Shown: piece after piece, positions 36,043-60,185 of the stretch
Position numbering within the stretch: position 1 is the first letter of the stretch
Layout: every line of letters starts with the position of its first letter
NCBI GenBank assembly: GCA_022264855.1
Contig: JABYQU010000001.1
Span: 1,736,001-1,800,000, forward strand
Source of the DNA: Lenzites betulinus
Taxonomy: Eukaryota; Basidiomycota; Agaricomycetes; Polyporales; Polyporaceae
Length of the DNA stretch: 64,000 nucleotides
Direction: 5' to 3'
Program-made: the position numbers and the translations under genes
Notes under the pieces: generated by a model
Told to the model about the DNA's origin: nothing
The model's input: only the letters and a program-made list of their open reading frames with translations
Databases searched by the model: none

Positions 36043-37198
36043 ATGTCGCTCAAAATCCTCCCACACATTCCTGAAGTATCGCTCGTACCAGTGCTCAGCG
36101 ATGTCAGCGATGGGGATGATGAAAAGCTGAGTTCACCCGCAGAGTCTGACATCGTGGTAGAGATTGCGCCAGTCTGTAACAATGAACCTATTGTTACTCG
36201 CAGAGTGCGCTAAGTTCCTACTACGAGTCCGCTCGACAAGTGCTCACGTTGATTGGACAGGAATTGTGGAGTTATTACCGTCAGAGACTTCAGGTCATCA
36301 TCATGTTTGGAGTACGCTGACCGTCATTGTGTGCAGTGTATTACAACAGAGATAACGTACGTTTCCTTGCCCGACATCTCTACTTCATGGCGCTGATGAG
36401 CCACTACTTTGTCCAGGGAGTCGGGCCTCTGGGTTCGCGATTCTGTCTAGTGATTCTGTTTACACATGCTCATCTTGCTGTTGATATAGGATACTCCATG
36501 ACGTTGTTCCAATCGCTAGCCGTCCGGGCTGGATACGATCCCGTGAACGGCCCCGGGTCTAGCTGTTCAGCCCCAGATGCCTCGGGGAAATGTGTCCTTC
36601 CCTGGGGCAAGGGGACCAAGTCTGTCAACTCCACTGTACTGGTCGCCAATGGCGCGAGTTTCGCAGTACGTCGTCGCATTCGCGATGGCCATTCATCTAA
36701 ATTTATGTGCCTCAACACAGATTATGACTCTCCTATTCACCACGGTGAACTCCATCGCGGATTACGGCTCTTTCGGACGATGGATCTTGCTCGTATTCAC
36801 CGTCCTATGCTGGGGCGCCCAGTTCGCGAGCATGTCATTAACTAGTAAGCTGCCACTCACGTTCGTTCGGACTAATATACTGACCCTACCATCAGCACCC
36901 GATAGATGGGGCCTTGCCATGGCTCTGTATATGCTTGGGTTTATCAGCTACGGTGCCACTCTTGTCTACTACGCGGCACTCTTCCCGCGCTTGGCTCGGA
37001 ACACGCCCCATGCACGTCGTCTGAGGGAGCAGTACGAGCGAGGTGAGATCTCTGCTGAAGAGTACCAGAGAGAGGAAAGCATGGAGACGAATCGTATCAG
37101 CAATATCAGCACGGTACGCATGTGCTTCACTCACCATAACTGAAGCTGACGGTGTCATGGGGCACGTAGGCGCATAGTAACATCGGATACATCATCAC
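36043..37198 (+). pseudogene. ATG22: ATG22, 5' part, interrupted by a retrotransposon
   Basis: Exons: 36043-36204, 36261-36279, 36337-36356, 36417-36432, 36490-36665, 36721-36844, 36896-37113, and 37170-37198 (first 29 nt of exon 8). Atg22 is a major-facilitator-type vacuolar membrane permease that exports amino acids after autophagic breakdown. Seen are the cytosolic N-terminus (MSLKILPHIPEVS...EPIVTRR), the ELWSYYLYYNRDN motif built from two tiny exons (19 and 20 nt), MTLFQSLAVRAGYDP, and several membrane helices (IMTLLFTTVNSIADYG, LYMLGFISYGATLVYYAALF). The frame reaches SNIGYIIT, where the LTR begins. Up to that point it is intact with no mutation, so the break is the insertion itself. 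Translation would run on into the LTR to a stop at 37482-37484. Confidence 0.9.
37194..37198. repeat. Target-site duplication, left copy (ATCAC)
   Basis: ATCAC before the 5' LTR; the matching copy is at 44539-44543. A 5-bp duplication is normal for Ty3/gypsy integrases. Confidence 0.92.
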
Positions 37199-37563
37199 TG
37201 TTACAACCGTACGTGCTTCAGTGACGGTTGGTCACACGATTATGTCTGGGATCGGTCACGGACTCTGCCTCGTGGTTACCATGTGTTTTGGATACGTGTT
37301 TCGGTGCCTCATGGCTACGGTGTGTTTCTGCTACGCGTTTCAGTACCTTATGGCTACGGTGTGGTTACCTGCAGGCTGCGCCTCATGGTTACAGAGTGTC
37401 TCACATGTATATATACGAGTAGGAGAGCTGAGGAGAACCTCAGCTCGACCTGGTTATCTATCGCCCTTCGAACCTCCCCACTGAACCTCGATCCCTCTGT
37501 GTGAAGCGAATAAGTCCCTGTGCTGAAAGCCTAACAAGCGAACCACTGGGCGTCGTCTTAACA
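37199..37563 (+). repeat. 5' LTR
   Basis: 365 bp, identical to the 3' LTR as far as I can read. It contains about 3.5 degenerate copies of a ~39-bp tandem unit (starts near 37268, 37307, 37346 and 37381, each CCTYRTGGYTAC-like), a TATATATA box at 37408-37415 and a perfect 9-bp inverted repeat GAGCTGAGG/CCTCAGCTC around 37425-37447. The 264-nt open frame inside (37221-37484) is a by-product. Confidence 0.96.
37408..37415 (+). promoter_or_regulatory. LTR TATA box
   Basis: TATATATA about 34 nt before AGCTCGACCT at 37442, the proposed transcript 5' end inferred from complementarity to the primer-binding site. Confidence 0.5.
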
Positions 37564-37564
37564 T

Positions 37565-37575
37565 AAGGTCGAGCT
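37565..37575 (+). other. Primer-binding site, self-priming type
   Basis: AAGGTCGAGCT lies two bases after the 5' LTR. It does not resemble a tRNA 3' end (no TGG start). Its last ten bases are the reverse complement of AGCTCGACCT at 37442-37451 in the LTR, just where the transcript should begin after the TATA box. That is the Tf1/sushi arrangement in which the mRNA 5' end primes its own reverse transcription. Confidence 0.6.
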
Positions 37576-38104
37576 CTCCCCATCCGTCGATCTACCAGGA
37601 TCTAGACAACCAGCTGAAACCCGACGAACCCGAACCTGAACCGCTGCTGAAAAGCGAGCGGTAACCCGACGAATCGACACGGAACCAGTCCCGAACGAAT
37701 CAGAAGACTGGTCCTTTGACCCCAGCACTGGGTTAATCTACCACGAAGAACACCTAGTCTACCCAGTAGGAAACGACAAGTGGAGATACGTAAACCAAGA
37801 ACGAACAGACGTAACTATCGACGAACTCCGAGCAGAGAACCCTAACTACGACGAACGATACTATCGCTTCACTGGAAGAGAAGCCCCGAGACTAAGAGTC
37901 ACACCGAACCCGACCCCACTCGACCAGATCGCACAGGAAGATCCTGTCCCAAGAGAGCCAGAACCCGAGAACTCCGAGAGCGAATCAGAGCAATCTCAGC
38001 ATAGCTTCGACACCCCCACCCCACGAACCACCGGAGAACTTCCTGCATTAACAGACGCAGTAGCCACTATCCATATCCACGAAGAACCCCGACCGCAACC
38101 CAGA

Positions 38105-39022
38105 ATGGCAGACGAAGTCAAGCTCAAGATGCCGCCGACCTTCGATGGCAAACGAGAAGAGCTCATCGGATGGACCCAGAAATGCGCTCTCTACTTCAAG
38201 TTCTACGAAACCAAGTTCAACACCGACGAGAAGAAAATAACATTCGCGCTCATGTTGATGAACGAAGGAACGGCAGGACAATGGGCCAGCGACTTCATCA
38301 CTGAAGCTGAAGCTCGGAATCCCGTCAACTATGGCACTTGGAATGCCTTCAAGGACGCGCTTAAAGCTTCGTTCCAAGACGTCGATATGGCCGCCAGCGC
38401 CAGAGTCCTGCTACGGAACCTCAATCAGGGCAAGAAGACAGCGGAAGAATACATTCTCGAGTTCAAGAATGTCATCAGTCGATGCGGAATCAAGGACTTC
38501 AACGTTATCGCCGACTTCTTCTATCAAGGGCTGAACAAACCCCTGAGAGAAAAGATGTTTGCATTGGCCACTATGCCAGATGACGCCAGCAAGCTCTACT
38601 CTCAAGCAGCCCGCCTCGAACAGCAATGGCGACTAGGCCAAGCCTACGATAAGAACTCGACGAAGAAGCCAGTATTCTTCCCAAAGCGCTACTCGAGCCC
38701 AAAAGAGAAGGACCCTGACGCCATGGACGTTGATTGCATGACCACCGAAGAAAGAGACCGACACTACAAGGAAGGACGATGCTTCACCTGTCATGAAATT
38801 GGACATCTCTCTCGCCACTGCCCAACCAGGAAGAACAAAGGGAAGCAGCCAGCACGCAAGATGCGGATGACCGAAACAGAGGAGGAAGCCGAAGAAGAGG
38901 GCGACGAAGACGGGAACACTCGCACTGTTACAACAGCCAGAATTCGCACTGCACTCAGAGGAGTTACCAACCCAGTTGAGAGGGACTCGATGGTGAAGGA
39001 CATCCTGGAGGAGGGTTTTTAA
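38105..39022 (+). CDS. Retrotransposon Gag
   Basis: 305 aa from the first ATG of the element. Capsid-like helices (LIGWTQKCALYFKF, FALMLMNEGTAGQWASDF, LRNLNQGKKTAEEYILEF, FYQGLNKPLREKMF) are followed by one CCHC zinc knuckle (CFTCHEIGHLSRHC, about residues 225-238), a basic stretch and an acidic tail. The frame is open upstream for a further 155 codons (37640-38104) but without any ATG. The stop overlaps a GGGTTTT heptamer, and Pol is in the -1 frame. Confidence 0.9.
   Translation: MADEVKLKMPPTFDGKREELIGWTQKCALYFKFYETKFNTDEKKITFALMLMNEGTAGQWASDFITEAEARNPVNYGTWNAFKDALKASFQDVDMAASARVLLRNLNQGKKTAEEYILEFKNVISRCGIKDFNVIADFFYQGLNKPLREKMFALATMPDDASKLYSQAARLEQQWRLGQAYDKNSTKKPVFFPKRYSSPKEKDPDAMDVDCMTTEERDRHYKEGRCFTCHEIGHLSRHCPTRKNKGKQPARKMRMTETEEEAEEEGDEDGNTRTVTTARIRTALRGVTNPVERDSMVKDILEEGF
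39013..39019 (+). promoter_or_regulatory. Candidate -1 ribosomal frameshift heptamer (GGGTTTT)
   Basis: G GGT TTT in gag frame is immediately followed by the gag stop TAA at 39020. After a -1 slip the frame is open from 39019 through 39075 and continues straight into pol. It matches the X XXY YYZ rule. No test of efficiency or downstream structure was possible. Confidence 0.5.
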
Positions 39023-42000
39023 GAACGTGGTCCGAAGCGACGTCGAAACCACGCACGCAGGTCCGTGCTGTAATTATGGCAGACACCACCAAGCAATCCA
39101 TGAGGATACCGCTGGCCATAATCACGGACCGAATCGTCGAAACCCAAGCCCTTATCGACACGGGAGCACAAGACTCCTTTGTGGACTATCGATATGTCCT
39201 AGAAAAGAAACTGCCGATACAACCCCTCAAGGTCCCTATCCGAGCCCTCAACGCCGATGGAACCCCAAACAAGCAAGGGACAATCAAAGACTGTTCAGTC
39301 CTAGAAATCGAAGCTGGAGGACATCGACATCTTGTCCGCATGCTTGTCACCTCTCTAGGAAAGGAGAAGATCATCTTAGGGCTTCCTTGGCTACAAAGGG
39401 TCAACGCCGAAATTGACTTCACCCGAGGCTCCCTTCACATCGACCCAGCAAAAGTGAATCTACAGCTCTCTGAATGGTTGCGACAGCTCTGGTTCCCAGA
39501 ACAGAACCACTTCACCGGACGAATCATGCGGAAGACAACCATAGAAGATATTCCTGAAGACAATACGCGCCAACAGTCGGAAGAAGGCAGTATCATTGCA
39601 CAACAGGACACCATGAAAGCACCCTTTGCAGAATTACCCACGCCAAACGACGATCACCAAGAACAATGCACCGATAACCTGATACTAGCGTACCTGGACA
39701 AGACCATTGAGCACCACGGGGACTACCTAAAGCTAGGAGACAAACTCACCACAGAAAACCCTAGTGAGGAAGAAGACCAGCGAGTCCGTCCCCGCCCGCG
39801 AATAGGACGAATCTATCGAGCACCGGAAGGAACAAGCTTCATCTACTCTATGAATCTCTGGATACGGGCCAAGATCAACCCGGCTATGGCGCTCGCACAA
39901 CAAGCGTCCGAGAATAACCAGAAGATCCTACCTGAAGCATACCAAGAATTTGCATCGGTGTTTGAGAAGAAAGCGGCGGAACGATTCCCATCCTCCAGAC
40001 CCTGGGACCATGCCATTGAACTGAAACCGGATTTCGTGCCTAAGGATTTCAAACCATATCGGCTGTCTCCACAGGAGCAACAAGCAGCCGATGAATTCAT
40101 TGATGAAAACCTAAAGAAAGGCTATATTCGCGAATCCAAATCCCCAATGGCATCACCACTATTCTTTGTTGGCAAGAAGGACGGATCTCTACGGCCATGT
40201 CAAGACTACCGCTATCTCAACGAAGGAACCATCAAGAACGCTTACCCGCTCCCGCTAGTAGCCGAACTGGTTGACAAGCTGCAAGGTGCCAAGATCTTCT
40301 CCAAACTAGACTTGTGATCAGGCTACAACAACGTGCGAATCAAAGATGGTGATCAATGGAAAGCAGCTTTCAAGACCCACCGAGGACTATTCGAACCCAT
40401 GGTCATGTTCTTCGGACTATGCAACTCCCCAGGAACCTTTCAGGCAATGATGAACGCCCTATTCAAAGACATGATCGACGAAGGATGGCTTGTGATCTAC
40501 ATGGACGATATCCTCATCTTTTCGAAGGACCAGAAGACACACAAAGAACGGACACGAAGGGTGCTGCAAAGGCTATAAGAAAATGACCTGTTCTTGAAGC
40601 TGGAGAAATGCACTTTTGACGCACCAGAAGTGGAATATCTTGGGATGATCATCCGGGAAAACCAGGTAGCCATGGACCCTATCAAGCTGAAAGGCATCCA
40701 GGATTGGAAAGAACCCACCGACGTCAAAGGAGTACGGTCATTCTTGGGCTTTGGTAACTTCTACAGGCGTTTTATCGATCACTTTTCGGATATTGCAAAG
40801 CCGCTGAACGACCTAACCCGAAAGAACACCAAGTGGGAATGGACACCAGCCTGTCAGCAAGCCTTTGATACCCTGAAGAACAGATTCACCACAGCACCCG
40901 TCCTGCTAATGCCTGACACCTCCAAACCATTCTTCATCGAATCAGACGCATCGGACTTCACATCAGGAGCCGTCCTCCGACAACGAGACGAAAATGGCGA
41001 CCTCCATCCATGCGCATATTTGTCCAAGGGATTCAACGAAGCAGAACGAAACTACGAGATCTATGACAAAGAACTCCTAGGGATAATCCGATCTCTACAA
41101 GAATGGCGCCACTACCTCCTCGGAGCACCTCATCCAGTACAAGTCCTTTCTGACCACAAGAACCTGACCTACTACCGTGATGCCCATCGACTGAACCGAC
41201 GGCAAGCAAGATGGCTACTCTTCCTATCCGAATTCGACATCCAGCTACACCATGTCCCAGGAAAAGACATGATCCAATCCGACACCCTGTCCAGACGACA
41301 CGACCTTGGCCATGATAAGAAGAACGATAATAATGACCGCGTCCTCCTACCCGAACACCTCTTCGTCAGAATGATTGACTCCGAACTGCAAACACGCTTC
41401 AAAGAGTTTGTCATCAAGGACCAGATATTCCAGGCAATACACATGGCGCTGAAGACCGGAACACTTCCCCCCATCAAGTCTGCACTATCAGATTGGGAAG
41501 AACGGGACGGAATGGTATTCTTCAAGAACAGATGCTACGTCCCCGCTGATGAACAACTTCGGAGAGACCTAATCCAACGCTACCATGACACCCCGGCAAT
41601 GGGACACCCCGGACGCTTCAAGACACTAGAACTCCTACGACGCGACTACTGGTGGCCAGGAATGCACACAATGGTGTCTCGCTACGTGGAAGGGTGCGCG
41701 GAATGCCAGCAAAACAAGATCAATACGCATCCCACCACACCACCGCTGAACCCCATCTCGGCTGACGGCGTCACACGACCCTTCCAGCAAATCTCTGTTG
41801 ACTACATCACCGATCTACCGACATCTGACGGTTTTGACTCAATCATGGTCATGGTAGACCACGGCCTTACAAAGGGGGTAATCCTTACACCGTGCAACAA
41901 GACCATCGACGCCATCGGAACAGCCGCGCTCATGTATCAAACCGTATACCGACGTTTTGGCCTCCCAGAAAAGATCATCTCCGACAGAGGACCACAATTC

Positions 42001-42834
42001 ACATCACACGTCACCAAGGAACTAGGAAGACTCCTGAAGATCACGCTTTCTCTCAGCACCGCATACCACCCACAGAGCGATGGACAAACAGAAAGAGCCA
42101 ATCAGGAACTTGAAGTCTATCTCCGGATCTTCTGCACAGGTCGACCAGACACCTGGTCAAGACATTTGATCGACGCAGAAGTAGCGCACAACCAACGAGC
42201 CCATGCAGCCAGAAACGCCTCCCCCTTCTACCTCATGATGGGATACAACCCGTCCTTGATCCCCATTGCCTACCCAAGGACCAATGTTCCCCTGGTACAA
42301 GACCGCCTAACTGACCTGCAAAAGGCACGTGACGAAGCACTAGCGGCACATGAGTTAGCCCGGCAAATAATGAGGGACCGCATTATGGGAAAGTTCATCC
42401 CCTTCAAGAAAGGGCAGAAGGTCTGGCTCGAAGGCAAGAATTTGAAACTGTCATACGCCACCAGGAAGCTTGCGCCCAAACGAGAAGGACCATTTGAAAT
42501 CCTCGAAGTCATCGGCACCCTCAATTACCGTCTCAAGCTACCTGAAACATGGAAGATCCACCCCGTGTTCCACGCAAGTTTCCTCACCCCTTATAAGGAA
42601 AACGAAACACACGGCCCCAACTACACGCGCCCTCCACCTGATCTGATCGACGATCAAGAAGAATACGAAGTTGAGGCCATCGTGGGACACAAGAAGCAAC
42701 GAGGCGGAATCAGTTACCGAATCAAGTGGAAAGGATACTCCAGTGCCGAAAATACATGGGAACCGGAAGACATGCTGCTGCCTCATGCCCGAGAGCTCTT
42801 AGAAGGATATAAGCGGGCCAAGAAATTGGCCTGA
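39019..42834 (+). pseudogene. Retrotransposon Pol with chromodomain, two in-frame stops
   Basis: One frame (-1 relative to gag), with an internal ATG at 39076. Domains: aspartic protease (ALIDTGAQDSFVD, about 39148-39186); reverse transcriptase (SPLFFVGKKDGSLRPCQDYR, FGLCNSPGTFQ, YMDD at about 40499); RNase H ([24 protein letters not shown]); integrase with an HHCC finger (GHPGRF...CAECQQNK), catalytic Asp in SVDYITDLP, Asp in [10 protein letters not shown] and Glu in TERANQELE; and a C-terminal chromodomain ([20 protein letters not shown]). Stops at 40315-40317 (TGA, where relatives have Arg in LDLRSGYNN) and 40576-40578 (TAA) break the reverse transcriptase. The three pieces stay in one frame, so there is no indel. 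Confidence 0.92.
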
Positions 42835-42842
42835 ACCTCAAC

Positions 42843-43013
42843 ATGCTCGCACTCCTCGTACTCCTCTGTCTCTACATTCTCGCCCTCTTCGCCATCTCCC
42901 TCGCAGCCATCGCCTACATCCTGCGAGAGTTCTCTCAACGACTACTCGAGAGGACCCTCCTCTCCAGGGACTACCCCCCCAAGAAGGACGACTTCAACGC
43001 ATGGGGAACATAG
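42843..43013 (+). CDS. Small hydrophobic ORF after pol (56 aa)
   Basis: ATG eight bases after the pol stop. A strong membrane helix (LLVLLCLYILALFAISLAAI) is followed by a basic tail (REFSQRLLERTLL). Its end overlaps the start of the next small ORF. Function unknown; position is that of env in other elements, but there is no env-like feature such as a signal for surface export or a fusion peptide. Confidence 0.45.
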   Translation: MLALLVLLCLYILALFAISLAAIAYILREFSQRLLERTLLSRDYPPKKDDFNAWGT

Positions 43014-43216
43014 TCGCCGTCCTCATCACCACCTTCACCGCATTCCTCTTCGCTCTTGCCTTCCTCAGATACGTTTCCCAACTCTACTTCTCACTCCTCC
43101 AACACCTCCTCGACCACCGCGACCCACTCTCTCCCACCACCGTCGAAGACACTGCGACCAGCCATGGGGATGGAACTCCCATTCTCGCGCAATACCTGGG
43201 TCCCGACTCGGCCTAA
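43001..43216 (+). CDS. Second small hydrophobic ORF after pol (71 aa)
   Basis: Starts inside the last codons of the previous ORF (overlap of 13 nt) and begins MGNIVAVLITTFTAFLFALA, again one membrane helix, then a His/Asp-rich soluble part. It overlaps the next frame from 43164. The stacked overlap of three starts suggests coupled or leaky translation, which is inference. Confidence 0.4.
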   Translation: MGNIVAVLITTFTAFLFALAFLRYVSQLYFSLLQHLLDHRDPLSPTTVEDTATSHGDGTPILAQYLGPDSA

Positions 43217-43943
43217 CACACCCGTCGAAGACACCGCCAGTTACGTGTTCGTCGACGAAAACATCGCACCCACTCAATCGTCGAACTCGTCGGAGGAAAC
43301 TCTTCACGAATCTGAAGCGGTACAATTGTCGGACCCACGGATAGAAGCTTTCGCTGTGGCCTATGCACGAGCCGTAGACACTCAAAACGAGCTCGAAGAC
43401 ATAGTTGACGAAACCCTTTCGAGACGCAACTACAACCTGTGGGTAGTGGTCAGTCAGGAGTTCTACCAAAGGCGCGTAATCCGTCACCTCGAAGCAGTAC
43501 AACAAGCATTGGAGAATGTCCCCGGGGAAGAAGCGGCACACGCGCTCTACCACCTCGACGAAGGGATGCAACACCTCTCGGACGCACGAGAGAACATCGA
43601 CCATGCCCTCTCGTGGCCCACCAACCGACACCGCCTCCAACAGTACTTTGGACGAATCGTACCGGAACTCGGTGAACCAGAGCCAACCGAGCATCCGGGG
43701 GTCCAGCATCGTCTCGACGAACACGCGCGCTATCCCCGGCCCCTGAAGCACGATATGTTCGACCTCGCCTCGAACAGATCCAGCCCCTACGACCTCGTCC
43801 CGACACCCCCAGACCCGTACCTTGGCAAGCACCACTGCCAATCCCTCCTCCACCGCAGCTATCAATCCCATTCTACGCCACTCCGGTACCTGTCGCTGCG
43901 GAAAACACGACTACTAGCCGATACCCCATCCTCGACGCAATAG
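43164..43943 (+). CDS. Third retrotransposon ORF, helical protein of unknown function
   Basis: 259 aa from ATG 43164 in a different frame from pol. The middle is helix-rich and acidic (DPRIEAFAVAYARAVDTQNE, LHESEAVQL, HLEAVQQALENVPGEEAAHA). The last ~90 residues become Pro/Arg/Ser-rich and lose coherence. In the same DNA the -1 frame (43676-44134) stays open and after about 43800 looks more coding, running through Pro-rich sequence into two Cys/His knuckles. A single-base shift or a frameshift event near the C-run at 43801-43808 could join the two. I recognise no family. Confidence 0.5.
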   Translation: MGMELPFSRNTWVPTRPNTPVEDTASYVFVDENIAPTQSSNSSEETLHESEAVQLSDPRIEAFAVAYARAVDTQNELEDIVDETLSRRNYNLWVVVSQEFYQRRVIRHLEAVQQALENVPGEEAAHALYHLDEGMQHLSDARENIDHALSWPTNRHRLQQYFGRIVPELGEPEPTEHPGVQHRLDEHARYPRPLKHDMFDLASNRSSPYDLVPTPPDPYLGKHHCQSLLHRSYQSHSTPLRYLSLRKTRLLADTPSSTQ

Positions 43944-44134
43944 CCAATGAACAGTTCTGCCTCAACTGCGTCATCGTCGGCCACGGAACGCTATACTGTC
44001 CCCAGAGACAGTGTCGTTGGTGCAGGATGTGGGGTGCAGGACATCTCGATGCGGACTGCCCTTGGTTCGGAACTGCGTCCCCTCGCTCTCCTCCGCGCTC
44101 ACCGGAGACTCGACACTTCCGAGACAACATCTGA
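43676..44134 (+). CDS. Overlapping -1 frame with two zinc-knuckle-like motifs
   Basis: Open for 152 codons without its own convincing ATG. It encodes a Pro-rich stretch (APLPIPPPPQLSIPF), then CLNCVIVGHGTLYC (CX2CX4HX4C, a canonical retroviral knuckle, 43958-43999) and CRWCRMWGAGHLDADC (CX2CX6HX4C, to 44059). It ends at TGA 44132-44134, shortly before the polypurine tract. It is most likely the C-terminal part of the third ORF product after a frameshift or indel. Confidence 0.5.
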   Translation, partial: TRANRASGGPASSRRTRALSPAPEARYVRPRLEQIQPLRPRPDTPRPVPWQAPLPIPPPPQLSIPFYATPVPVAAENTTTSRYPILDAIANEQFCLNCVIVGHGTLYCPQRQCRWCRMWGAGHLDADCPWFGTASPRSPPRSPETRHFRDNI

Positions 44135-44160
44135 AGAAGTCGAGGGCGACTTCCTACCAT

Positions 44161-44170
44161 AGAAAGGGGG
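44161..44170 (+). other. Polypurine tract
   Basis: AGAAAGGGGG three bases before the 3' LTR, in the position of the plus-strand primer. Confidence 0.6.
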
Positions 44171-44173
44171 TTA

Positions 44174-44538
44174 TGTTACAACCGTACGTGCTTCAGTGAC
44201 GGTTGGTCACACGATTATGTCTGGGATCGGTCACGGACTCTGCCTCGTGGTTACCATGTGTTTTGGATACGTGTTTCGGTGCCTCATGGCTACGGTGTGT
44301 TTCTGCTACGCGTTTCAGTACCTTATGGCTACGGTGTGGTTACCTGCAGGCTGCGCCTCATGGTTACAGAGTGTCTCACATGTATATATACGAGTAGGAG
44401 AGCTGAGGAGAACCTCAGCTCGACCTGGTTATCTATCGCCCTTCGAACCTCCCCACTGAACCTCGATCCCTCTGTGTGAAGCGAATAAGTCCCTGTGCTG
44501 AAAGCCTAACAAGCGAACCACTGGGCGTCGTCTTAACA
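44174..44538 (+). repeat. 3' LTR
   Basis: 365 bp, the same sequence as 37199-37563, followed at once by ATCAC and the rest of ATG22 exon 8. Identity with the 5' LTR dates the insertion as very recent. Confidence 0.96.
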
Positions 44539-44543
44539 ATCAC
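44539..44543. repeat. Target-site duplication, right copy (ATCAC)
   Basis: Second copy of ATCAC directly after the 3' LTR. Confidence 0.92.
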
Positions 44544-45982
44544 ACTGGCTCTCAATCTAACGATTCTCCTGCCACGGGCGAGCGATCCCAAGGTGAACAA
44601 CTATGTGCTCGTTTTGTAAGGACCCTACATGCACTAGGCTTTTGGGGATCGTAACTGACTTTTAATAGGACCAACGGGTACTGGGTACTTCTAGGTGTCT
44701 GGTGGTGTACGTATATCCTCAGTGTACACGAAGCTGCTCCTTATAATGCTCCCCGCAGTCATATTTCAACAGCCACGCCCAGGGCCCCCGCTTCCCGCAG
44801 GGGAGCACTACGCGACCATAGGATGGAAGCAGGTGCGCAACGCCGCTTCGGTCGTACTATGAGACCAAGAGCTGGCGCTGAACCTGTAGCAGATCTTGAT
44901 GGTGCTCAAGCAGTACAGGCAACTCCCCTACACGTTCGTATACTTGGCGGCCTTCTTCCTTCTTGCTGATGTACGTGTATTCACCGTGAAGCATTATGTA
45001 CTACTCACATTCTGCGAACAGGGTTTCAATACCTCCGGTACCCTCGTGTACCTCTGTCAGAACGACAGATTTCAGTTCTCCTTCCTTCAGAACACATACC
45101 TCGGGCTACTACAAGCCGTCGCATCCACCACGAGGTAGGTTTTGATTGAATCGTAAGCCTCGTCGATATGCCCACGTTTTTTCTCTTCAGTACTTTGGGA
45201 TTCTGGTACATTCAGCGGCACTGGAAAATCCCGACCAAGAAGATGGTATGTTCTACATCATCAACGCTCACCGCGATATATTCGGTGCTCATATCGTCCT
45301 AGTTCGCAGTGACTAATATTGTCACCATTCTGATTCCCCTGTGGGGGATGATTGGGATCTGGTCATCGAACTTCGGGTATGTCGTTCCATCATATTCTGC
45401 CTTGAGGCTCTTCAAACATGGTTCCCTCTCCACGCCCAGATTCCGCAATGTGTGGGAGTTCTGGGCTTACAATGTTGTCTCTGGGCTGTTCCAAGCGCCG
45501 TACTATGCGTTCTCGCAGACAATGATGGCGGAGCTCACTCCCCCGGGATTCGATAACATGGTGTGTTCCCCTCTGCAGTGCATCATTATGAATGACTTTC
45601 CTAACGAGCACCGATCATGCCCTGCAGTTCTTCGGCCTTTTTGGCCTCTCAAACCGCGCGTCGAGCCTCATAGGTCCTAACGTGGTGCAGGCGATCATTG
45701 ACCAGTCGGGAGACAACTGGAAGGGGTTCCCGTTCCTCTTCGCACTGTGCACCGCCGCATGTCTTGTGCTCTGGATCGGTGAGTGCGACCACTGCTTCCG
45801 GCGTGTGTAGCACTACGCGCTGACAACTCTGTTACGTGATGTTAGGCGTGGACATGAAGAAGGGGCGGCACGACGCCATCGCGTGGGCGGCGAAACAACG
45901 CGCGTATGTTCAACGACAGCAGGGAGCCGGGTCGGATTCAAACATAGATGCAGCAGACAAGTCCGAGCCGGAAAAGATATGA
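44544..45982 (+). pseudogene. ATG22: ATG22, 3' part, downstream of the retrotransposon
   Basis: Continuation of the interrupted exon 8 and later exons: 44544-44615, 44669-44706, 44759-44832, 44893-44970, 45022-45134, 45191-45245, 45303-45376, 45440-45560, 45628-45778, 45846-45982. With the element and one copy of ATCAC taken out, the frame joins exactly and the 17 exons would encode 558 residues. Visible Atg22 segments are RQLPYTFVYLAAFFLLADG, FLQNTYLGLLQAVASTTS, VTNIVTILIPLWGMIGIW, APYYAFSQTMMAELTPPG and FGLFGLSNRASSLIGPN, plus the last helix FPFLFALCTAACLVLWIG. No stop or frameshift is seen in this half, consistent with a very recent disruption. Confidence 0.9.
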
Positions 45983-57083: not shown

Positions 57084-60000
57084 ATGGCGCTCGTGCTCCC
57101 GCTCGAGCTCACGCGCGCGCTCGACGTGCTGCTCATCGACAACTTCGACTCCTTCACGTGGAACATCTACCAGTCGCTGCGCCTGCTCGGCGCGGACGTG
57201 ACCGTCGTGCGCAACGACGCGCTCGCGCCCGCCGCGTTCCCGCTCCTCAAGCTCAACGCGCTCATCATCTCGCCCGGGCCCGGGCACCCCGCGACGGACG
57301 CGGGCGTGTCGCGCGACGCGATCCGCTATTTTGCGGGCAAGGTGCCTGTGTTGGGCGTGTGTATGGGGCTGGAGTGTATTGTGGATGTGTTCGGGGGGAA
57401 AATTGGGTGAGTGCGGTTTGGTGTGGATCTGGGAGAATGATAATGTGGGGAGGGGTGAGTCCCCGCGAAGGTGGATGGGGATGGCCGATGTGGGCGCGAT
57501 GCGCAGCTCGGGTCGCGGAGGCTTGCGCGATCGGCAGAGGAGGGCCTTGCTCGCCTTGAAAATACGGCCTATCCTCGCATCGGGCAACTGCGCTGGTTAA
57601 TCTACGTTTGTGCAAAGAACTCGTGCCGAGCCCGCCGTACGCAGCGAAGTTGCGAGGCCATGGAAGAGGTTCTGCGAGCATCGCCGATGCTATCGACCTG
57701 CGAATCGCGCGCACGAAAAGAGGGCCTCGCGCGGGGCGGAATTCCCCTCCGCCCCCCGCGAGGACCCTTTTTGCTGGGCTTCCCGGCTGGCGGAGCCGAG
57801 TCGCCTGCGCGCGACGGCGGGCTGCGTATGGGATCTGCATGGCTTGGGATTGTCAAGTCGGGAGCCTGTTCGGGTGCAGGGCCTGCTGTCGAAGGATTCT
57901 AGCTTTGCGCAGGCTGCGTGCCTTCCTCGCGTCCCCGAAAGCCGCGGATGCATGGTGTGTGGAAGACGAGCCTTACGTACCCGCAAGCAAGGCAGAATCC
58001 TTCGGCGGAGGCCGACTCGTCGTGGCGTTCGCTGCGCGAGGCGTTCTCCCGATGGTCAGAACGGCTTGCGTTCTATTCCTTCTCTGCGACACAACCCTGT
58101 TCTGCGTAGAGTTCAGCGTGCTGACGGCGCACGCCATCTAGCTATGCGGGGGAGACGATGCACGGGAAAGTGAGCGCGATCCGGCACGACGGCCGGGGCT
58201 GCTTCAAGGACATCCCGCAGGGTATCAAGTCCACCCGCTACCACTCGCTCAGCGCGGCCATGAGCACGTTCCCCCCGGAGCTCGCGATCACTGCCATCAC
58301 CCAGGACGGCGGCGTCATTATGGGCGTCCGCCACCGCAAATATACGCTCGAAGCGGTCCAATACCACCCGGAGAGCATCCTCTCCGAGGGTGGAGACATC
58401 CTCTTCAAGAACTTCCTCGCCCTCCGGGGCGGCACCTGGGACCTCAACCCGGCGTTCCGTGTCGCCGACGAGACGCTCCCCGCGTTTGGGCTTGAGGGCA
58501 TCGCGAACGTCGTCGAGCCCGCGACGAATGGTGCCAGCGGGAGCACCCCCTCCAAGGTGCCCACCATCCTGGAGAAAATCTACGCGCAGCGCCTTAAGGA
58601 CGTCGAAATTGCGAAGAAGACCCCGGGGACGACCCCGGAGGACCTCGACACGCTGCTCGCGCTCAACGTCGCGCCCGCCCCCGTGTCGTTCGTTCAGCGC
58701 CTCAAACAGTGTCCGACGAAGCCTGCCCTTATGGCCGAGATCAAGCGCGCGAGTCCGTCGAAGGGCCCCATCGCGATGACCACAAATGCGGCCCAGCAGG
58801 CCCTCACTTACGCGCTCGCGGGCGCGTCCGTCATCTCCGTGCTGACTGAGCCGACGTGGTTCAAGGGAAGCCTACTGGACATGCGGCTCGCGCGCCAGGC
58901 GATCGACGCGCTCCCGCACCGGCCGGCGGTCCTCCGCAAGGACTTCATCTTCGACGAATACCAGATCGCGGAGGCGCGGCTGCACGGCGCGGACAGCGTG
59001 CTGCTGATCGTCGCGATGCTGCCCGTGCCGCGCCTGCACGCGCTGTACGAGTACGCGCGCGGGCTGGGCATGGAGCCGCTCGTGGAGGTGAACAACGCGC
59101 GCGAGATGGAGGCCGCGCTCGCGCTCGGCGCGCGCGTCGTCGGCGTGAACAACCGCAACCTGCACGACTTCCAGGTCGACATGGGCACGACGAGCCGCCT
59201 CGTCGACATGGTGCGCGAGCGCGACGTCGTGCTCTGCGCGCTCAGCGGCATACAGAGCGCGCAGGACGTGCGCACGTACACCGCGCAGGGCGTCGGCGCC
59301 GTGCTCGTCGGCGAGGCGCTCATGCGCGCGGCGGACACCGGCGCGTTCATCCGCCAGCTGCTTGACTGGCCCGAGCCCGCCGCGGACGCGAAGGGCGCGG
59401 CGGCGGAGGCTGCCCCGCTTGTGAAGATATGCGGCATTCGCACCGAGGACGAGGCGATGGCCGCGATCGAGGCGGGCGCAGACATGCTCGGGCTTATGTT
59501 CGTGCCCTCCAGCAAGCGCGCCGTCTCGCTCGAGCAGGCGCAGAAAATCTCCGCCGCGGTGCACGCGCGCCGCCTGGTCCGCCTGCCCCCCGCCGTCACC
59601 CCCGCCGAGACCTCCCCCGCAGAACAGCTGAAGAACGAGACGTGGTTCGCGGCGCACGCGCGCCGGCTCGCTGCGTCGCCCACGCGCCCGCTCGTCGTCG
59701 GCGTGTTCCAGAACGCGCCGCTGGAGAGCATCGTGCACGCGGTGGCGGCCGCGCAGCTGGACATGGTGCAGCTGCACGGCGCGGAGCCGACGGAGTGGGC
59801 GCGGCACATCCCCGTGCCGACCGTGCGCGTGTTCCACGTCGCGGAGGGCGGGCGCGGGCTCGCGGGCATCGCGCGCCCGGGCGCGCACCAGTTCGTGCTG
59901 CTCGACGCGGTGCCGCAGGGGAGCGCGAGCGGGCTGAGCGGCGGCTCGGGCGCGCGGATCGACGTGCAGGTCGTGAGGGAGGTCGTGGAGCGCGGCGAGG

Positions 60001-60185
60001 TCGGCGCGGGGGAGCGGCTGCCGGTTATTCTGGCGGGTGGGCTGACGGTGGAGAACGTGCGGGAGGTGGTGGAGGCCGTGCGGCCGTGGGCGGTGGATGT
60101 GAGCGGGGGCGTGGAGAAGGCGGACGGGTCGGGGAAGGATCCGGAGAAGGTGAAGGCGTTCATCGACGCCGCTAAGGGGCTATAA
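57084..60185 (+). CDS. TRP1: Trifunctional tryptophan biosynthesis protein (GAT/IGPS/PRAI)
   Basis: Two exons: 57084-57406 and 58142-60185; 788 aa. In order it carries the glutamine amidotransferase subunit of anthranilate synthase (LLIDNFDSFTWNIYQSL; nucleophile Cys in VLGVCMGLE; His-Glu in QYHPESIL), indole-3-glycerol-phosphate synthase from about residue 250 (ALMAEIKRASPSKG, VLRKDFIFDEYQ, LVEVNNAREMEAAL, VGVNNRNLHDF) and phosphoribosylanthranilate isomerase from about residue 530 (VKICGIRTEDEAMAAIEAGA, LGLMFVPSSKRAV, VQLHGAEP, PVILAGGL). All three active sites look complete. This fusion order is the usual fungal one. The single intron is 735 nt, ten times the local norm, and splits the amidotransferase at GGKIG/YAGE. 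Confidence 0.93.
57716..57773 (+). other. Long hairpin inside the TRP1 intron
   Basis: CCTCGCGCGGGGCGGA (57725-57740) pairs with TCCGCCCCCCGCGAGG (57748-57763) with one mismatch over 16 bp and a 7-nt loop. Past a single bulged A, the stem extends by about eight more pairs (AAGAGGG-type against CCCTTTT-type). Role unknown. Confidence 0.6.

What the first reader, a model, noticed from the sequence alone, without database searches (positions are those of the whole stretch)
37194..44543. Very recent chromovirus insertion cuts an otherwise intact ATG22
The two 365-bp LTRs read as identical, the 5-bp duplication ATCAC is perfect, and both halves of ATG22 have clean exons that join in frame when element and one ATCAC are removed. 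ATG22 exports amino acids from the vacuole after autophagy, so this haplotype should lack it. In a dikaryon the other nucleus may carry an uncut allele.
Basis: partly seen in the sequence, partly recalled or inferred. Interest (0 to 1): 0.82.

Follow-up and report, generated by a model that had tools for sequence, protein, structure and literature searches.

The report
Retrotransposon inside a duplicate ATG22-like gene
In a wood-rotting bracket fungus a jumping element has landed cleanly inside one of four ATG22-family transporter genes, but the broken gene is a fast-changing spare copy, so the cell most likely keeps its main vacuolar amino-acid exporter.

Summary
A 7,340-bp chromodomain Ty3/gypsy element (LTRs 37199-37563 and 44174-44538, identical over 365 of 365 bases; duplication ATCAC) interrupts exon 8 of an ATG22-family gene. 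Without element and one ATCAC the gene reads as 17 exons and 559 codons with no lesion. The genome is very probably Lenzites betulinus. The functional claim does not hold: of three other ATG22-family loci, a canonical-type ATG22 (C31) and a conserved sister gene (C2) read as intact; C61 was not resolved. The cut gene is a fast-evolving duplicate, full length in three of the four other species of its clade in my tree. 'Very recent' is only bounded: one LTR change per about 1.3 Myr is expected at a rate used for fungi. The inserted copy has two stops in its reverse transcriptase, absent from eight other full-length copies, and a one-base deletion downstream, absent from the five other young copies. 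Private LTR changes of young copies are shared by both LTRs in 10 of 11 cases, so this element was probably defective before it landed and was moved by proteins of another copy. Behind pol lie two conserved small hydrophobic ORFs and a cysteine-rich ORF without detected relatives. Overall: well supported but ordinary, with one side lead.

The parts
36043..37198 (+). 5' half of the ATG22-like gene (C1): exons 1-7 and the first 29 bp of exon 8, i.e. codons 1-254 and two bases of codon 255
   Evidence: gene model with GT-AG introns; PF11700 match E 1.2e-18 for a frame of this half
37194..37198 (+). target-site duplication ATCAC, left copy
   Evidence: 5-bp duplications also flank 8 of 8 other full-length copies examined
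37199..37563 (+). 5' LTR, 365 bp, TG...CA
   Evidence: identical to the 3' LTR, 365 of 365
37408..37415 (+). TATATATA, possible TATA box of the LTR
   Evidence: position only; promoter use is inferred
37442..37451 (+). inferred start of R; its 10 bases are the exact complement of the primer-binding site
   Evidence: 10-base match, seen in about 0.1% of 2,000 shuffled LTRs
37566..37575 (+). primer-binding site, self-complementary to the LTR (self-priming type)
37640..39022 (+). gag frame (460 codons) with a CCHC zinc knuckle
   Evidence: PF03732 E 7.9e-12; knuckle read by eye
38980..40317 (+). pol frame, first part (protease to RT); ends at a stop inside the RT domain
   Evidence: PF08284 E 1.8e-8; stop absent from 8 of 8 other full-length copies
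40318..40575 (+). pol frame between the two stops, middle of the RT domain
   Evidence: PF00078 E 6.6e-15, profile positions 77-177 of 205
40576..40578 (+). second in-frame stop in the RT domain
   Evidence: absent from 8 of 8 other full-length copies
40579..42834 (+). pol frame, last part: RNase H, integrase (H2C2, rve), chromodomain
   Evidence: PF17919, PF17917, PF17921, PF00665, PF24626, PF00385
42843..43013 (+). ORFa, 56 codons plus stop, one strongly hydrophobic stretch
43001..43216 (+). ORFb, 71 codons plus stop, one strongly hydrophobic stretch; its start overlaps the end of ORFa
43014..44134 (+). ORF3, one 373-codon frame in 6 of 8 other full-length copies; split here by a 1-bp deletion near 43696 not seen in the five other young copies; Cys-rich C-terminus
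44161..44170 (+). polypurine tract before the 3' LTR
   Evidence: sequence
44174..44538 (+). 3' LTR
44539..44543 (+). target-site duplication ATCAC, right copy
44544..45982 (+). 3' half of the ATG22-like gene: rest of exon 8 and exons 9-17, to the stop codon
   Evidence: gene model (there the right part of exon 8 is numbered 9 and the rest 10-18); PF11700 E 1.6e-11 for a frame of this half

Best explanation
A member of a young chromodomain Ty3/gypsy subfamily of the polypore Lenzites betulinus integrated, in sense orientation, into exon 8 of a duplicate (probably dispensable) member of the ATG22 family and broke that copy. Shown: structure, duplication, intact flanking exons, four ATG22-family loci, and faster protein evolution of the cut type. 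Inferred: reading from the 5' half continues about 95 codons into the LTR and ends at a stop (37482-37484), giving a protein cut in a hydrophobic stretch; skipping exon 8 (101 bp) would shift the frame; the remaining ATG22-family genes keep vacuolar export. Also inferred: the element was probably already defective when it landed (two stops in RT, a frameshift in ORF3) and was reverse-transcribed and integrated by proteins of another copy.
For: Structure. Paralogues: PF11700 rings at C1, C2, C31 and C61. The C31 protein, joined by eye, finds 'autophagy-type protein 22 [Lenzites betulinus]' (P0121, 93% identity over 100%), whose contig length of 444,837 equals that of C31; P0121 maps back to C31, and one search shows no stop or frameshift there over the part aligned. 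C2 has start, stop and no lesion in a spliced alignment and is 93% identical to a T. versicolor protein over 503 residues. Tree of 37 rows: C1-type clade of 5 rows, support 100/99, end branches 0.17-0.43, against 0.014-0.093 in the five C2-type rows of the same 10-row group. Tajima counts with Daedaleopsis as outgroup: C1:C2 87:22, T. cingulata 96:15, T. versicolor 55:15. Timing: in six young copies 10 private LTR changes are shared by both LTRs and 1 is in a single LTR, so an estimated 5% (95% limit 26%) of private changes postdate insertion. If all 83 internal private changes were post-insertion, 9.2 LTR differences would be expected; 1 was seen, P = 0.001.
Against: Gene conversion between LTRs could also erase single-LTR changes. 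For the window copy alone, no LTR change with 9 internal private changes is unremarkable (P = 0.37). No expression data. Yeast Atg22 itself was not aligned, so C31 as the orthologue rests on names, N-terminal motif (recalled) and PF11700 score. C61 was modelled with a frameshift that may come from the 300-bp intron limit of my script. The fork that joins C1-type and C2-type rows is weakly supported (92/65). [quoted passage not shown] and a duplicate kept in several species probably has some function.
Confidence: 0.85

Rival explanations
1. One reading: the only ATG22 is cut, so this nucleus lacks vacuolar amino-acid export after autophagy.
For: The cut gene matches PF11700, and some sources name its relatives 'Autophagy-related protein 22' or '22-1'.
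Against: Three further PF11700 loci, the best-scoring one annotated as autophagy-type protein 22. In Beauveria bassiana, which has four Atg22-like proteins, their ablation did not block autophagy (PMC9959203, abstract and two sections seen).
Confidence: 0.05
2. Assembly artefact: the element was joined wrongly into an intact gene.
For: Six nearly identical young full-length copies exist, this one included, which can confuse assemblers; reads were not available.
Against: A perfect 5-bp duplication at exactly the base where the exon rejoins in frame, and a private LTR change present in both LTRs of this copy, are not expected of a misjoin.
Confidence: 0.04
3. The element's stops and frameshift arose after it landed; it was a competent copy when it inserted.
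For: For this copy alone about one LTR change would be expected and none is not surprising (0.99 expected, P of none 0.37). 6 of 8 private C-to-T/G-to-A changes lie in CpG, as expected of a copy sitting methylated in DNA.
Against: Pooled over six young copies, private LTR changes are shared by both LTRs in 10 of 11 cases.
Confidence: 0.2
4. The gene still works as two half-transporters, the 3' half driven from the 3' LTR.
For: Gene and element are on one strand, and the LTR has a TATA-like stretch.
Against: The cut falls in a hydrophobic stretch (residues 246-268) in the first half of the protein; the first in-frame Met to the right of it lies some 65 residues on (read by eye).
Confidence: 0.03

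Closest known systems
Fungal chromoviruses of the Tf1/Sushi group (Ty3/gypsy, Metaviridae)
   Same: gag, protease, RT, RNase H, integrase, chromodomain at the end of pol; 5-bp duplications; self-complementary primer-binding site, a trait of the Tf1/Sushi group (passages of PMC6317226)
   Different: Three further frames after pol, two of them small and hydrophobic. Additional ORFs of unknown function are named in a figure legend for fungal elements (PMC2864245, passages), so extra ORFs as such are not new.
ATG22 family, vacuole effluxer Atg22-like (PF11700)
   Same: a frame of each half is above the curated cut-off
   Different: The cut gene is the fast-evolving duplicate; the canonical type is another locus, C31.
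Four Atg22-like genes of Beauveria bassiana
   Same: four PF11700-type genes in one filamentous fungus (PMC9959203, abstract and sections 3.1 and 4 seen)
   Different: Gene-by-gene orthology with Lenzites was not tested.

Membership tests
Chromovirus (Ty3/gypsy with chromodomain) | chromodomain C-terminal to integrase | tested here: met
   PF00385 E 3.5e-16 behind rve and H2C2
Chromovirus (Ty3/gypsy with chromodomain) | order protease, RT, RNase H, integrase | tested here: met
   protease, RNase H and integrase in order; RT found in the piece between the two stops of the window copy (PF00078 E 6.6e-15) and in the matching piece of another copy (E 1.5e-31)
Chromovirus (Ty3/gypsy with chromodomain) | position in an RT/integrase tree | not tested
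   no tree of pol was built
Tf1/Sushi group | self-priming: primer-binding site complementary to the transcript's 5' end | tested here: met
   10-base exact complement 37566-37575 / 37442-37451; about 0.1% of 2,000 shuffled LTRs do as well; the transcript start itself is inferred
Tf1/Sushi group | position in an RT tree with Tf1/Sushi elements | not tested
   no tree of pol was built
Recent LTR insertion | identical LTRs and perfect target-site duplication | tested here: met
Recent LTR insertion | absent from other haplotypes of the species | not testable with these tools
   no second Lenzites assembly or reads; only other species could be compared
ATG22 family PF11700 | match above curated cut-off | tested here: met
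   67.5 and 44.1 bits against 24.1
Orthologue of yeast Atg22 | closest relative in this genome to canonical ATG22 | tested here: inconclusive
   against: C31 scores higher (best exon 141.8 against 59.1 bits) and carries the name; but yeast Atg22 itself was not aligned
Orthologue of yeast Atg22 | vacuolar location and amino-acid efflux | not testable with these tools
   needs an experiment

The most novel reading that the evidence does not exclude
The element family carries an accessory cassette behind pol: two overlapping small membrane proteins (ORFa, ORFb) and a cysteine-rich protein (ORF3). All look kept by selection, none has a detected relative, and together they could be an env-like or particle-release module of a fungal chromovirus.
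Probability: 0.25. Interest if true: 0.6.

Novelty: new member of a known kind. Interest (0 to 1): 0.3.

Why it matters
It shows how an 'autophagy gene knocked out by a transposon' shrinks once paralogues are counted: the element sits in a fast-evolving duplicate, where selection may tolerate it. The copy is also a usable case for asking whether defective chromovirus copies are still moved in trans. The conserved small ORFs behind pol are a lead for what some fungal chromoviruses do besides gag and pol.

Tried and rejected
Empty allele: DNA searches with both flanks (1,452 and 1,799 bp) found only the locus itself at 100% and, for the right flank, the C2 paralogue at 65% and 83% in two pieces. 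Two other stretches also gave one hit each, so no second haplotype is held for these four stretches. Rescue by exon skipping: rejected, exon 8 is 101 bp. Split transporter: disfavoured. ORF3 relatives: none at E <= 0.001 in the protein database (7,774 candidates), none in viral contigs; 21 matches in the own genome, all at 92-100% identity, hence copies of this family. Pfam at E <= 0.5 gave three matches for ORF3 and one for ORFa, all under their cut-offs, and none for ORFb. Target preference: the joined flanks of eight other full-length copies gave one clear context, another retroelement's pol (L026); the frames crossing the site in L027, L028, L029 and L030 had no Pfam match, those of L031 and L033 were not scanned, and L032 had no crossing frame. 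The same test sees only a 42-codon frame at the window's own site, so it misses intron-rich genes, and no claim about targeting is made. Literature: papers used came; searches gave nothing that I used (one search lists PMC2864245 and PMC5689174 again).
Full report
What is there. The finding is real at its coordinates. The two LTRs (37199-37563, 44174-44538) are identical over all 365 bases and run TG...CA; ATCAC flanks the element on both sides. Leaving out the element and one ATCAC, the flanks give a gene of 17 exons and 559 codons with 16 GT-AG introns and no internal stop. The insertion lies in codon 255, in the 101-bp exon 8. In the 11 proteins aligned there, C1 itself included, the residue and its neighbours are ungapped in all 11. 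A frame from each half matches Pfam PF11700 above the curated cut-off; two shorter pieces of the right half, scanned alone, had no match.

Which organism. The window is C1:1736001-1800000 of a 37.4-Mb, 108-contig genome. The ATG22 protein of contig C31, which I joined by eye, retrieved 'autophagy-type protein 22 [Lenzites betulinus]' (P0121; 93% identity over 100%) from a contig of 444,837 bases, exactly the length of C31, and that protein maps back to C31 in pieces. Lenzites betulinus is a species of Polyporaceae; that it is a wood-decay fungus is recalled.

Which gene. PF11700 rings at four loci of this genome: C1 (this one), C2, C31 and C61. C31 has the strongest match and an N-terminus (GWFSYAFASEVFV...) of what I recall as the canonical form. 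C2 has a start codon, a stop codon and no lesion over the spliced alignment, is 72% identical to C1 and 93% to a Trametes versicolor protein. C61 was modelled with one frameshift that I attribute to my 300-bp intron limit; this is not resolved. In one search, 525 of 7,999 scored candidates passed E <= 0.001 and 120 were listed; I used 34 of those 120 in a tree with three Lenzites sequences. C1 falls with Trametes maxima, T. cingulata, T. versicolor and Cubamyces in a clade of 5 rows (support 100/99). The fork that joins this clade with five C2-type rows is weak (92/65), and the C61 outgroup is a very long branch. End branches in the C1-type clade are 0.17-0.43, in the five C2-type rows (two Trametes genes with a C1-type partner in their species or genus among them) 0.014-0.093. 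Tajima counts of unique changes, with Daedaleopsis as outgroup, are 87:22 (Lenzites C1:C2), 96:15 (T. cingulata) and 55:15 (T. versicolor); with Fomes 85:19, 96:12 and 55:12. So the element cut a fast-evolving duplicate, not the conserved gene. C1-type proteins are 559 aa in T. maxima, 550 in T. cingulata and 543 in Cubamyces; the T. versicolor model is 479 aa and lacks the N-terminus. All four are continuous across the insertion point, so the insertion is not shared by these species.

Function. In Beauveria bassiana, which also has four Atg22-like proteins, their ablation did not block autophagy; the proteins differ in location, and the one closest to yeast Atg22 was on lipid droplets. All four do contribute to starvation response and conidiation (PMC9959203: abstract, section 3.1 and discussion seen). 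I therefore do not accept that this haplotype lacks vacuolar amino-acid export, but loss of one member could have an effect. The predicted product of the cut gene is the first 254 codons plus about 95 codons to a stop at 37482-37484; this is inference.

Dikaryon. Four stretches of the window each have one match at 100% (the right flank also finds the C2 paralogue). The assembly holds one haplotype there; whether another nucleus carries an empty allele cannot be told.

The element. Pfam finds gag, protease, RNase H, integrase and chromodomain; the piece between the two stops is the middle of RT (PF00078 E 6.6e-15), and the matching piece of another copy scores E 1.5e-31. A 10-base primer-binding site close behind the 5' LTR is the exact complement of LTR bases 37442-37451, 34 bases behind the start of a TATATATA; about 0.1% of 2,000 shuffled LTRs do as well, and the one older copy looked at has it too. 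Self-priming is a trait of the Tf1/Sushi group (PMC6317226, passages). The LTR has 41 matches in the genome, a lower bound (40 of 49 candidates scored). Eight other full-length copies were compared: five at 99.1-99.5% identity to this one and three at about 95.8%. All eight have 5-bp duplications. LTR pairs are identical in five of six young copies, this one included, and differ at one base in the sixth; the three older pairs differ at 1, 5 and 4 bases.

Age. With 0 of 365 differences and 1.05e-9 changes per site per year (rate in a passage of PMC5689174), one change is expected after 1.3 Myr and the rule-of-three bound is 3.9 Myr. 'Very recent' is compatible, not shown. The intact exons agree with youth.

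Dead on arrival? The window copy has stops at 40315-40317 and 40576-40578 in RT, absent from 8 of 8 other full-length copies, and a 1-bp deletion near 43696 that splits ORF3 and is absent from the five other young copies. Among the six young copies, changes private to one copy and lying in an LTR are shared by both its LTRs in 10 cases and confined to one LTR in 1. A change shared by both LTRs predates insertion (or was spread by gene conversion). This puts the share of private changes that came after insertion at about 5%, upper limit 26%. If all 83 internal private changes were later than insertion, 9.2 LTR differences would be expected; 1 was seen (P = 0.001). The window copy by itself gives no power (0.99 expected, 0 seen). 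Three of 8 other full-length copies keep an open 1,284-codon pol frame, so proteins in trans are plausible. Private C-to-T and G-to-A changes fall in CpG in 6 of 8 cases here and 42 of 64 over six copies (3 of 9 in one of them, L026; LTR changes counted once per LTR), against about 24% expected from the base counts (pooled P = 2e-12). That is the pattern of methylated DNA; methylation itself was not measured.

Extra frames. Behind pol lie ORFa (56 codons) and ORFb (71 codons), each with a strongly hydrophobic stretch (best 19-residue mean 2.9 and 2.6), ORFb starting within the end of ORFa, then ORF3 (373 codons in 6 of 8 other full-length copies). Over 14 copies (of 15 considered; L043 covers only part and was dropped), 17 of 24 variable codons in ORFa and ORFb vary only synonymously, against about 35% expected under a mutation spectrum that I chose (P = 3e-4; the two frames share a few bases). 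Against this: of 11 copies in which ORFa was read, 7 have 56 codons, 3 run on to 80 after a change in a C run, and 1 stops at 27; ORFb has 71 codons in 11 of 11 (2 of 13 copies were not found by the anchor). Two of the 14 aligned copies, or one copy twice, have a stop codon in ORFa. dN/dS between one young and one older copy is 0.32 for gag, 0.09 for pol and 0.19 for ORF3. The C-terminus of ORF3 has a CX2CX6HX4C motif (by eye). No relative was found at E <= 0.001, in viral contigs or in Pfam above a cut-off. Additional ORFs of unknown function are named in a figure legend of a survey of fungal Gypsy elements (PMC2864245, passages), so the kind is known; whether these particular ones are described I could not establish.

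Verdict. The insertion is clean and probably young, but in a fast-evolving spare gene. Interest is modest; the conserved small ORFs and the probable movement of a defective copy are the parts worth following.

Noticed in passing
window 42843-43216: Two overlapping small frames behind pol (56 and 71 codons), each with a hydrophobic stretch, conserved between two subfamilies of the element.
   Followed up: partly
window 43014-44134; L028:1408-2526: ORF3 of the element: 373 codons in 6 of 8 other full-length copies, dN/dS 0.19, cysteine-rich end, no relative in the protein search.
   Followed up: partly
L026-L030 and window element: Private C-to-T/G-to-A changes of the six young copies fall in CpG in 42 of 64 cases, suggesting methylated source copies.
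   Followed up: partly
L032, 1-1000 and 8356-9350: Flanks of this copy have a CpG observed/expected of 0.08 against 1.08 for the window, as if strongly methylated for long.
   Followed up: no
L026 flanks: This young copy sits inside the pol gene of another retroelement (RNase H and integrase domains).
   Followed up: no
L042, L043: Rearranged or nested older copies: the pieces are split, repeated or inverted relative to the window element.
   Followed up: no
window 58125-60185: Long frame that looks like a multidomain tryptophan synthesis gene of the TrpC kind (by eye, recalled); one match in the genome.
   Followed up: no
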